This document shows positions 6,218 through 27,618 of a stretch of DNA of 64,000 nucleotides, one piece after another. The notes under the pieces were generated by a model, which was given only the letters and a program-made list of their open reading frames with translations, had not been told where the DNA came from and did no database searches. This DNA comes from a bacterium. Lineage in GTDB: Bacteria > Electryoneota > RPQS01 > DYHQ01. Location: NCBI GenBank assembly GCA_030622545.1, contig JAUXGA010000001.1, positions 124,001 through 188,000 of the forward strand, written 5' to 3'. Position 1 is the first letter of the stretch; the number at the start of each line of letters is the position of its first letter. The translations under genes were made by a program, and so were the position numbers.

Positions 6218-6298
6218 CGGAGAGGGGGGGATTCGAACCCCCGGTACGGTTGCCCGCACGCACGCCTTCCAAGCGTGTGCCTTCGACCACTCGGCATT
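6218..6298 (-). pseudogene. tRNA-Ser 3' fragment (putative att site remnant)
   Basis: D-arm to discriminator of tRNA-Ser(GGA) present, 5' acceptor strand missing; 6242-6295 identical to 27556-27609. Confidence 0.8.
6242..6295. repeat. 54-bp direct repeat, left copy (att core)
   Basis: cggtacggttgcccgcacgcacgccttccaagcgtgtgccttcgaccactcggc, identical to 27556-27609. Confidence 0.9.
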
Positions 6299-6349
6299 GT
6301 ATTCATTGATGTTAGGGCATTAGAATCCACCATTTTTCCATAATCTGTC

Positions 6350-6369
6350 GGCGCAGTGTTGGCGCAGAA
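6350..6369. repeat. 20-bp direct repeat, left copy (possible integrase arm site)
   Basis: ggcgcagtgttggcgcagaa, identical to 27455-27474. Confidence 0.7.
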
Positions 6370-6537
6370 GGAGGGAGGTTACGGGAGAAGCCAGCTCAAT
6401 TCTGCGGGGAAATTGATGCAGGGATTGGAGATGGCAGAGTGGTTTCCCGCAGTGTAGTAGCTCCTTGGATAAGCACGGAGATCACCATTAGGGCGAAAAT
6501 GCGACTCATGATCGTAATGTCCATTTGGCAATAATTG

Positions 6538-7527
6538 TCATAATGCTATGACTGAAATTCCCCACGCGAGTCCACCACCGAATCCAACAAGCATGAATAA
6601 ATCGCCAGGTTTCAATTTTCCAGCGTCAATGGCTTCATCCAATGCGATAGGAATTGAGGCTGCAGAAGTATTGCCATATCTCTCGATTGTCACTACGAAC
6701 CTATCCATCGGCAGATTCAGTTTCTCAGCAATAGCTGATATGATTCGCAGATTTGCTTGATGCGGAATAATCAACTTGATATCATCGGGCGAAATCTCGT
6801 ATTTTTCGAGATACCTTTGAATGGCCGAAGGCACCGTTTTGACGGCCCAACGGAATATTTCTCGACCATTCATCTGAAAAAGAGACCTATTATTATTGTT
6901 ATCAGATATTCCGTTTATAAATTCTGCACCGAGGGGAATTGTCAACCAATCAACCGGATACTGAGTATCCATTCCTAACATACACCCTTTTATTCCCGTG
7001 TTTTCTTCCCCAGGACATACCAATGCTGCACCGGCGCCGTCCCCGAACAAAACAGCATTCTTCGGATCTGCATGAGTCACAAAGCGTGTCAAAGTATCGG
7101 CAACGATGACAAGCACGTACCTGGCGGCACCCGTCTGAATGAATTGTTCCGCTATGTTCAGTGCGAATATGAAGCCGGAGCAGGCTGCATTCAGATCAAA
7201 AGCAGCGGCTTTAAATGCGCCTATCTTCTCTCGAACGATTGATGCCGTTGACGGCAGCAGGCGGTTAGGTGTGATCGTCGCCAGAATGATCAAATCAATA
7301 TCCAACGCTTTAACGCCTGATTTATCGAGCGCCGCTAACGCCGCATTTGCTGCCAAATCAGATGTGTTCTCATTTTCAGCAGCGATCCGTCGAGTTTCTA
7401 TACCCGTGCGGCTCAAAATCCAATCTTCATCGAAGTCAAGGACTTTGGCCAACTCAGCATTGGAGCGAACTCTTTGGGGAAGGTAACTTCCTGTACTGAG
7501 GATTTTCGCAGTCTTAAATGATTTCAT
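6538..7527 (-). CDS. 3-oxoacyl-ACP synthase III family protein (KAS III/FabH-like)
   Basis: ACSGF active site, IIPHQAN, RYGNTSAASIPIAL motifs. Confidence 0.9.
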   Translation of the reverse strand: MKSFKTAKILSTGSYLPQRVRSNAELAKVLDFDEDWILSRTGIETRRIAAENENTSDLAANAALAALDKSGVKALDIDLIILATITPNRLLPSTASIVREKIGAFKAAAFDLNAACSGFIFALNIAEQFIQTGAARYVLVIVADTLTRFVTHADPKNAVLFGDGAGAALVCPGEENTGIKGCMLGMDTQYPVDWLTIPLGAEFINGISDNNNNRSLFQMNGREIFRWAVKTVPSAIQRYLEKYEISPDDIKLIIPHQANLRIISAIAEKLNLPMDRFVVTIERYGNTSAASIPIALDEAIDAGKLKPGDLFMLVGFGGGLAWGISVIAL

Positions 7528-7563
7528 ATCTCGGCAGTAACTTTCTCTTTCCTTTATGACTAA

Positions 7564-7839
7564 TTATCGAACTCCGCCCGCAGGGTTCAAGGAAAAAAAC
7601 ATAAAGACCAATCCAACGAATCCCATAGCGTATCCTATATTGGACATCTTTGTTTCACTGACCCGTTCTGATAAATTGAGATGTTTGATAAAGAATTCCG
7701 GCCAGAAGGAAATGGTAATCCCTCCCAGAAACGTGACTATTCCAATAATCATCAGTGAAACAATCATCTCATCTATCCCAAGAATTGTAAAACCACTTCT
7801 GCACGGATTGTTACCCGTGATTTTTTCGTTCCTGCTCAA
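7564..7839 (-). CDS. Small two-TM membrane protein
   Basis: Hydrophobic segments; overlaps the 3' end of the radical SAM gene; true start may be internal. Confidence 0.5.
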   Translation of the reverse strand: MSRNEKITGNNPCRSGFTILGIDEMIVSLMIIGIVTFLGGITISFWPEFFIKHLNLSERVSETKMSNIGYAMGFVGLVFMFFSLNPAGGVR

Positions 7840-26328: not shown

Positions 26329-26358
26329 GACGATAGAAACATATCCATTAATCCAAGA

Positions 26359-26396
26359 GGCCCCGAGGTGACAATAATCGCCTTGGGGCTTTTTTG
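26359..26396 (+). terminator. Intrinsic terminator upstream of integrase
   Basis: GGCCCCGAGG...CCTTGGGGC followed by T6. Confidence 0.75.
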
Positions 26397-27443
26397 TTTC
26401 AGGAGGGAAGAAAAGTGCCCAGTCTAAGAAAGCGAAAGTACCGAAGTGGAAAAGCGGCGTGGGTGATTTACTACCGTGTTGGAGGAAAGCTTTACCAGTA
26501 TACAATTGGGGATTTGAAAGCAAGCGAAGCTAGGAAAATCTATCATGATTTCTGTTCAAAGTACTTGCGGGGCATTGACCCCAGTGAAATTGAATCCATG
26601 AAATCCAAGTCACTATACCATGTCAGTGACCTTATGAACGAATATCTGCAATACAGTCAGACAAACAAAGCAGAAAACACGTGTCGAATTATACGTGAAG
26701 CCTTCAGGTATTTTCTTCGTTTCACAAGCGATATAGCGTTGGGAAGGGTGGACGTGCGTATCATAGAACGGTTCAAAGTGTGGAGGTTGGAATCGGTTAA
26801 ACCTACAACCTTGAACATCGCCTTTCGCGCCTTGAAAGCTGGTTTCCAATATGCTGTCAAGTTAGGTTGGCTTTCGAACAATCCATTCGCAGGTGTCAAA
26901 CAGGTTCCGGTACCCGAAGCAGACTATCCGGTGTACCTTTCACAAGAGGAAGTTCAAGAATTGTTGTCAGTGATTAACGACCAAGAATTCCGTCGGTTGA
27001 TTAGGTTCTACTTGCTGACAGGATGCCGTCGATCAGAAGTGGCGCTGTTGGATTGGATGGATATTGATATGGAGGGGAGAACTGTAGTGATCAGGTCACG
27101 GTCGGCAAAGAACAAGAGAAACCGAATCATTCAGGTGGGGGAGAAGCTATATGGACTATTGCTTGAACAAGGTCCGAAACCATCAGGAAAGGTGTTTCCC
27201 AGATGGAAGCCCTGTTCTATTACCAATATGTTCAGGCGGTACGTTGATAAGTGCGATTTCGGTCGCAAGATAACTGTTCATTCCTTGCGACACACAGCAA
27301 CAGTGCATTGGTTATTGGCAGGGGTTGATATTCACACGGTAAGTAAAATATTGGGGCACACATCCATTCGAATCACCGAGACAGTCTATGCGCATGTTCC
27401 TGCAGCGCGGAGGCAAGAGGCCATGGACAAATTGCCTTATTAG
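26394..27443 (+). CDS. Tyrosine recombinase/integrase
   Basis: TGCRRSEVALL, HSLRHT, HTSIRITETVYAH catalytic motifs; next to tRNA-Ser 3' end; GTG start near 26415 possible. Confidence 0.93.
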   Translation: MFQEGRKVPSLRKRKYRSGKAAWVIYYRVGGKLYQYTIGDLKASEARKIYHDFCSKYLRGIDPSEIESMKSKSLYHVSDLMNEYLQYSQTNKAENTCRIIREAFRYFLRFTSDIALGRVDVRIIERFKVWRLESVKPTTLNIAFRALKAGFQYAVKLGWLSNNPFAGVKQVPVPEADYPVYLSQEEVQELLSVINDQEFRRLIRFYLLTGCRRSEVALLDWMDIDMEGRTVVIRSRSAKNKRNRIIQVGEKLYGLLLEQGPKPSGKVFPRWKPCSITNMFRRYVDKCDFGRKITVHSLRHTATVHWLLAGVDIHTVSKILGHTSIRITETVYAHVPAARRQEAMDKLPY

Positions 27444-27454
27444 ATGAAAGTGTT

Positions 27455-27474
27455 GGCGCAGTGTTGGCGCAGAA
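27455..27474. repeat. 20-bp direct repeat, right copy (possible integrase arm site)
   Basis: ggcgcagtgttggcgcagaa, identical to 6350-6369. Confidence 0.7.
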
Positions 27475-27531
27475 TAAATTATGAGCACAAAGCCCCACTT
27501 CACGTGAGGCCTTAAGTTATTGATTATATTG

Positions 27532-27618
27532 CGGAGAGAGTGGGATTCGAACCCACGGTACGGTTGCCCGCACGCACGCCTTCCAAGCGTGTGCCTTCGA
27601 CCACTCGGCCATCTCTCC
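27532..27618 (-). tRNA. tRNA-Ser (anticodon GGA)
   Basis: Full cloverleaf, GGAGAGA/TCTCTCC acceptor, long variable arm, GGA in loop. Confidence 0.95.
27556..27609. repeat. 54-bp direct repeat, right copy (att core inside intact tRNA-Ser)
   Basis: Identical to 6242-6295. Confidence 0.9.

What the first reader, a model, noticed from the sequence alone, without database searches (positions are those of the whole stretch)
6218..27618. About 21.3-kb tRNA-Ser-anchored integrative element carrying an envelope/lipid-type gene cluster
Seen: 54-bp perfect direct repeats (6242-6295, 27556-27609), one inside an intact tRNA-Ser(GGA) and one in a 3' tRNA fragment; tyrosine integrase next to the tRNA; 20-bp repeats at 6350 and 27455 just inside each end; plus-strand replication/recombination genes. 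Known: tyrosine integrases commonly use tRNA 3' ends as att sites. Inference: the MMPL/LolA/DUF1302/KAS III/radical SAM block (6.5-19.6 kb) is cargo. A replicating element carrying a lipid-making and export-type operon without visible transfer or capsid genes would be unusual.
Basis: partly seen in the sequence, partly recalled or inferred. Interest (0 to 1): 0.75.

Follow-up and report, generated by a model that had tools for sequence, protein, structure and literature searches.

The report
tRNA-Ser island carrying lipid operon
A 21-kb stretch of DNA that inserted itself into a serine-tRNA gene of an uncultured bacterium carries an operon that probably makes and exports an acylated lipid; the same operon rides in an unrelated island in another bacterial family, so this lipid trait appears to move between species as cargo.

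Summary
A 79-nt repeat (96% identical, 54-nt perfect core) places an intact tRNA-Ser(GGA) at 27531-27618 and a displaced 3' fragment at 6217-6295. A tyrosine integrase with all catalytic residues abuts the tRNA, and 24-nt arm-type repeats lie inside both ends. In the same order, five related integrases (52-55% identical) all sit beside tRNA-Ser(GGA) or its repeated 3' part. The site is unoccupied in the same-family genome G001 and in G002.

The 6.5-19.6 kb operon is cargo. It is absent from 37 of 39 same-phylum genomes. The one other carrier, in another family, holds it inside an unrelated 22-kb element with perfect 50-bp repeats at tRNA-Arg(TCT). The operon N-acyltransferase is 80% identical between the two, while their chromosomal orthologues are 53%. 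That protein is a tandem-GNAT paralogue of one encoded beside serine palmitoyltransferase, where bacterial ceramide synthase is expected. With KAS III, patatin, radical SAM, MMPL, LolA and DUF1302 this suggests N-acyl or sphingolipid-like synthesis and export (inferred).

The replication/recombination module recurs in a second island of the same genome with another integrase; the window's primase has an internal stop. No transfer or capsid genes were found. New variant of a known kind: integrase-bearing, non-conjugative genomic island.

The parts
6217..6295 (-). distal att copy: displaced 3' 79 nt of tRNA-Ser(GGA), partial tRNA; core 6242-6295 identical to the right copy
6346..6369 (+). left arm-type repeat (24 nt, 96% identical to right copy)
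6538..7527 (-). KAS III (FabH-family) beta-ketoacyl synthase; Cys/His/Asn triad present
   Evidence: Pfam PF08541/PF08545, NF006829 392 bits, motifs
7811..9283 (-). radical SAM/SPASM protein with CxxxCxxC at residues 129-136; best family matches are mycofactocin/heme-type maturases, far below their cut-offs
9568..10650 (-). predicted outer-membrane beta-barrel protein
   Evidence: PF13505
10734..11561 (-). 275-aa protein of unknown family, hydrophobic N-terminus
   Evidence: no match; sequence
11780..13117 (-). DUF1302-type outer-membrane protein
   Evidence: PF06980 weak, below cut-off; conserved beside MMPL and LolA in operon relatives
13144..13902 (-). LolA-like periplasmic lipid carrier
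   Evidence: PF17131 E 9e-63
13899..14948 (-). patatin-like phospholipase (RssA-like), GxSxG and DGA present
   Evidence: PF01734
14852..15961 (-). tandem-GNAT N-acyltransferase, paralogue of the protein encoded beside serine palmitoyltransferase (bacterial ceramide synthase-like)
15963..18944 (-). MMPL/HAE3-type RND lipid exporter
   Evidence: PF03176, TIGR00921 278 bits, below cut-off 352
19004..19588 (-). TetR-type regulator; best match to the FadR fatty-acid regulator family, below cut-off
   Evidence: PF00440, NF053878
19885..26408 (+). backbone module shared with a second island in the same genome (80-82% nt identity); homology ends at the start of the integrase gene
20046..23078 (+). 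AEP-type + CHC2 zinc-finger primase frame, interrupted by TGA at 20517-20519 (ORFs 20046-20519 and 20535-23078)
23079..23870 (+). conserved non-coding stretch with a long hairpin (about 23145-23215) whose pairs change on both sides between the two elements; possible structured RNA or origin
   Evidence: no Rfam match
23875..24588 (+). Rad52-type single-strand annealing protein
   Evidence: PF04098
24679..25440 (+). DUF932 phage/plasmid-type protein
   Evidence: PF06067, TIGR03299 below cut-off
25522..26328 (+). PD-(D/E)XK RecB/Cas4-type exonuclease
   Evidence: PF12705, phrog_69
26394..27443 (+). tyrosine integrase adjoining the intact tRNA
   Evidence: PF00589, phrog_1, relatives at the same tRNA
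27451..27474 (+). right arm-type repeat, two tandem TGTTGGCGCAG units
27531..27618 (-). intact tRNA-Ser(GGA), 3' part re-created by the element (proximal att)

Best explanation
A non-conjugative integrative element (genomic island or satellite type) of about 21.3 kb inserted by its tyrosine integrase into the 3' half of tRNA-Ser(GGA); the element supplied a new 3' part so the tRNA stayed whole (shown by anatomy). It carries a replication/recombination module, now with a broken primase, and a cargo operon under a TetR-type regulator. Inferred working of the cargo: KAS III and the ceramide-synthase-like GNAT make an N-acylated, sphingolipid-like lipid, perhaps from the host's own serine-palmitoyltransferase products; radical SAM and patatin tailor it; MMPL lifts it from the inner membrane; LolA ferries it across the periplasm; the DUF1302 protein places it at or through the outer membrane. 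The operon is transmissible cargo that changes the host envelope. How the element moves between cells is unknown; a helper phage or conjugative plasmid is possible.
For: Mobility: att repeats, integrase and arm sites. Integrase relatives of 52-55% identity sit beside tRNA-Ser(GGA) in G006, G008 and G011 and beside its 56-nt 3' repeat in two G005 contigs, with distal 3' fragments in G005 and G008. The tRNA-Ser of G001 (same family) keeps the same gene on its 5' side but has no integrase next to it, and G001 lacks both the operon and the backbone. Cargo: the operon lies inside a different 22-kb element at tRNA-Arg(TCT) in G031, bounded by perfect 50-bp repeats, with a 31% identical integrase and a Prim-Pol/DUF3987 replication gene. 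GNAT identity is 80% between elements versus 53% between the hosts' chromosomal copies and 66% for SPT; operon GNATs form a separate 100/100 clade. Lipid function: SPT neighbour NF047600 611 bits and NAD epimerase beside the chromosomal paralogue; tandem-GNAT fold; PlsC, YegS-type kinase and methyltransferase in the G039 operon, CDP-alcohol phosphatidyltransferase just after the operon in the G031 element. Backbone shared with a second island in the same genome under purifying selection, dN/dS 0.05-0.2.
Against: No excised circle or read evidence. No left-flank synteny in relatives, so there is no perfect empty-site alignment. Primase broken, so this copy may no longer replicate. No excisionase or transfer gene found. 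Rejoining the two tRNA halves gives an A7-C66 mismatch, so at least one base changed after insertion. Substrate chemistry is inferred from families only: the GNAT's membership in characterised bacterial ceramide synthases was not tested by direct sequence comparison, SPT scores slightly under its cut-off (611 of 640; 586 in the own genome), and the window operon carries no SPT of its own.
Confidence: 0.6

Rival explanations
1. The element is as described, but the operon is an amphiphile or toxicant efflux system (as for AmeABCD of Castellaniella); the acyl genes only adjust membrane lipids for tolerance.
For: MMPL is HAE3-like, and HAE3 + LolA-superfamily + outer-membrane-protein cassettes are described as exporters of apolar compounds (PMC6394551). 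The TetR-MMPL-LolA-DUF1302 core occurs without KAS III or GNAT in several phyla.
Against: The closest relatives (G031, L030, G039) add lipid-synthesis genes, and a GNAT and rSAM travel with the operon in several; KAS III and patatin also lie beside the core in G118.
Confidence: 0.25
2. A phage satellite or defective prophage remnant whose lipid operon alters the envelope to block phages (superinfection exclusion).
For: Primase, SSAP, exonuclease and integrase match PHROG families. Backbone relatives in family f5 lie near MoxR-vWA and DUF499 genes, a neighbourhood often read as defence (own knowledge).
Against: No capsid, packaging or terminase gene. Backbone relatives were not found in phage records or plasmids, and IMG/VR gave only distant DUF932 hits. 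PADLOC gives only weak generic matches.
Confidence: 0.1
3. Not mobile now: an old, decayed island kept for the lipid operon (compatible with the best explanation's history, but not with present mobility).
For: Nonsense codon in the primase; no excisionase found; substitutions in the distal tRNA fragment.
Against: Integrase frame and motifs intact, 54-nt perfect core, arm repeats 96% identical.
Confidence: 0.35

Closest known systems
Integrase-bearing genomic islands without transfer genes, moved by jumbo phages (I55 and kin, Pseudomonas; PMC12595487)
   Same: tyrosine integrase beside an RNA gene, flanking direct repeats, cargo, no autonomous transfer genes
   Different: those sit downstream of tmRNA and carry defence systems; here tRNA-Ser, a primase/Rad52/DUF932/exonuclease module and a lipid operon; carrier unknown
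Tycheposons (tRNA-anchored cargo elements, as summarised in PMC10872708)
   Same: tRNA border, tyrosine recombinase, metabolic cargo
   Different: different host phyla, tRNA and replication genes; core genes not compared here
AmeABCD apolar monoterpene exporter (PMC6394551)
   Same: HAE3-type RND pump with a LolA-superfamily periplasmic protein and an outer-membrane protein, borne on a genomic island
   Different: no KAS III, GNAT or radical SAM described; linked to terpene metabolism; no COG4447 (AmeC-like) protein was identified here
Bacterial ceramide synthesis genes (spt, bcerS, cerR; PMC11324152, PMC11334938)
   Same: the element's GNAT is a paralogue of the protein that lies between SPT and an NAD epimerase in this phylum
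   Different: no SPT or CerR in the element; the GNAT forms its own clade

Membership tests
tRNA-targeting integrative element (tyrosine integrase) | flanking direct repeats including a tRNA 3' end | tested here: met
tRNA-targeting integrative element (tyrosine integrase) | intact integrase beside the restored tRNA | tested here: met
tRNA-targeting integrative element (tyrosine integrase) | unoccupied site in relatives | tested here: inconclusive
   G001 and G002 have tRNA-Ser(GGA) with no related integrase; 5'-side synteny kept in G001, left flank not matched
tRNA-targeting integrative element (tyrosine integrase) | excised circular form | not testable with these tools
   needs reads or PCR
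ICE (integrative conjugative element) | relaxase and type IV secretion genes | tested here: not met
   no such Pfam or PHROG match among the element's main ORFs
Prophage | capsid, terminase and tail genes | tested here: not met
Phage satellite (PICI/P4 type) | packaging interference or capsid-remodelling genes, or helper dependence | tested here: inconclusive
   no such genes recognised; helper dependence not testable
Tycheposon | shared core genes with Prochlorococcus tycheposons | not tested
   only the general layout (tRNA, tyrosine recombinase, cargo) was compared, from PMC10872708
Bacterial ceramide synthase (bCerS) | orthology to the protein encoded beside SPT and the NAD epimerase (CerR-like) | tested here: inconclusive
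   paralogue, 44-47% identity, separate clade; not compared directly with the Caulobacter enzyme
HAE3/MMPL + LolA + outer-membrane-protein exporter | RND pump, LolA-type periplasmic protein and outer-membrane protein in one operon | tested here: met
   (the DUF1302 match itself is below Pfam's cut-off)

The most novel reading that the evidence does not exclude
A mobile sphingolipid-remodelling operon: unrelated tRNA islands repeatedly pick up the same TetR-MMPL-GNAT-patatin-LolA-DUF1302-KAS III cassette and impose a foreign N-acyl/sphingolipid outer-membrane lipid on hosts that already make sphingolipids.
Probability: 0.35. Interest if true: 0.7.

Novelty: new variant of a known kind. Interest (0 to 1): 0.5.

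Why it matters
Sphingolipid-type lipids are now thought to be widespread in uncultured bacteria (PMC11334938). An operon with a ceramide-synthase paralogue and its own export line, carried by two unrelated tRNA islands in two families, would mean that outer-membrane lipid composition can be transmitted like a resistance gene. The island family itself (primase, Rad52, DUF932, exonuclease, exchangeable integrase) was not found in the phage and plasmid collections searched here and recurs in this phylum, with up to four copies per genome of its DUF932 marker.

Tried and rejected
Conjugative element or prophage: no relaxase, T4SS or capsid match. Known phage or plasmid relatives of the backbone: none beyond local primase-motif matches; IMG/VR scans with the primase and MMPL found nothing and DUF932 only distant kin. 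Defence island: PADLOC matches of rSAM (viperin) and patatin (CBASS effector) are weak and generic. The ends of the second island (C13) could not be set: its integrase adjoins tRNA-Gly(CCC), but no matching distal repeat was found; a separate 26-bp tRNA-Gly repeat and a second integrase next to tmRNA are nearby. Rfam gave nothing for the non-coding stretch. A search centred on the L030 genome was not accepted.

Full report
Observation. The stated repeats are real and longer than reported: 6217-6295 and 27531-27609 share 79 nt at 96%, with the 54-nt perfect core as given. In the whole own genome no other full-length copy exists. The right copy lies in an intact tRNA-Ser(GGA); the left copy is a partial tRNA followed by a terminator-like hairpin. 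Arm-type repeats of 24 nt lie 51-57 nt inside each tRNA copy. The integrase ends 88 nt from the tRNA and keeps the expected catalytic residues.

Specificity of the site. Outside this genome, searching 39 relatives at E <= 1e-60 returns six integrases. Five of them, in G005 (two), G006, G008 and G011 of the same order, are 52-55% identical over full length and lie beside tRNA-Ser(GGA) or its repeated 3' part. The sixth, in G007, is more distant (37%). In G005 and G008 the repeats start at the anticodon loop, 56 nt, and are followed by the tRNA terminator; in the window the repeat reaches tRNA position 10. G001, of the same family, has the tRNA with the same gene on its 5' side (49% identity) but no related integrase, operon or backbone. 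G002 keeps the tRNA order Ser(GGA)-Ser(CGA)-Arg(ACG), also without a related integrase. So the target is an integration hot spot and the island is absent from the nearest relatives. A perfect empty site cannot be shown because the left flank is not syntenic.

Cargo. On the minus strand, from 19.6 to 6.5 kb: TetR, MMPL, tandem GNAT, patatin, LolA, DUF1302 protein, unknown, beta-barrel, radical SAM, KAS III. Of 39 same-phylum genomes only G000 and G031 have a close MMPL. In G031 the operon lies in another element: perfect 50-bp repeats at tRNA-Arg(TCT), about 22 kb, a 31% identical integrase, a Prim-Pol/DUF3987 protein and a phage-type methylase. The operon GNATs are 80% identical between G000 and G031 although their chromosomal paralogues are 53% and SPT 66%, and they form their own clade (100/100) with the Zixibacteria and G039 operon copies. 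In other phyla the TetR-MMPL-LolA-DUF1302 core is sporadic (7 of 116 genomes had an MMPL match at E <= 1e-150) and no relative of the window's integrase was seen in the stretches read. Conclusion: old operon, recent cargo in two unrelated islands of this phylum.

What the operon may do. The GNAT is a second copy of a protein found in 36 of 39 genomes of the phylum. In the loci examined the chromosomal copy follows a class I/II aminotransferase best matching CFB-type serine palmitoyltransferase (611 bits against a cut-off of 640 in G017; 586 in the own genome), and in G017 and G031 an NAD epimerase follows. This is the gene set known for bacterial ceramide synthesis (PMC11324152, PMC11334938). 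The AlphaFold model (pLDDT 88) matches tandem GNAT structures. Related operons add PlsC, a YegS-type kinase and methyltransferases (G039), and a CDP-alcohol phosphatidyltransferase follows the operon in the G031 element. The export half resembles HAE3 + LolA-type + outer-membrane-protein cassettes such as AmeABCD (PMC6394551). The proposal, made as inference, is synthesis and outer-membrane delivery of an N-acyl or sphingolipid-like lipid.

Backbone. Window 19885-26408 matches a second island in the same genome (G000:C13) at 80-82% nt, ending at the start of the integrase gene, which is unrelated there (27%) and adjoins tRNA-Gly(CCC). dN/dS is about 0.05 for Rad52, DUF932 and the exonuclease and 0.2 for the primase. 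Rad52-DUF932-exonuclease-integrase sets recur in family f5 (36-49% identity for the first three proteins, 28-30% for the integrase); DUF932 has up to four copies per genome. The window's primase is interrupted by TGA at 20517-20519 where the C13 copy has a sense codon, so 'replicating' is doubtful for this copy. About 790 bp after the primase hold a conserved hairpin with three pairs changed on both sides between the two elements.

Limits. Only family-level evidence supports the lipid chemistry; movement is inferred from anatomy and phylogeny; the contigs are from draft genomes, and most relatives are unnamed. The confidence of the best explanation (0.6) is for the whole chain; the integrative-element part alone would be about 0.95 and the cargo status of the operon about 0.9.

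Noticed in passing
23079-23870: Non-coding stretch between primase and Rad52, conserved in the second island with a long hairpin whose stem shows changes on both sides; candidate structured RNA or replication origin, no Rfam match.
   Followed up: partly
L053:11345-18923 (G000:C13): Second island of the same backbone with a primase frame of 1006 aa free of the internal stop and another integrase beside tRNA-Gly(CCC); a third integrase adjoins tmRNA about 11 kb further on.
   Followed up: partly
L062, L063 (G005:C6): About 45-kb stretch bounded by 56-nt tRNA-Ser(GGA) 3' repeats with an integrase related to the window's; further repeats at the ends of contigs C26 and C33 suggest a tandem array.
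   Followed up: partly
L132:2969-5434, L133:5638-8085: 815-821 aa proteins with a weak RdRP-type match upstream of Rad52-DUF932-exonuclease-integrase in family f5.
   Followed up: no
9294-9346 and 11773-11825: 53-nt repeat (87%) covering the end of the DUF1302 gene and the start of the radical SAM region; the two genes between are missing in L030, so they were probably inserted.
   Followed up: partly
L026:14386-14459: A tRNA-Gly(CCC) gene lies inside the G031 tRNA-Arg element.
   Followed up: no
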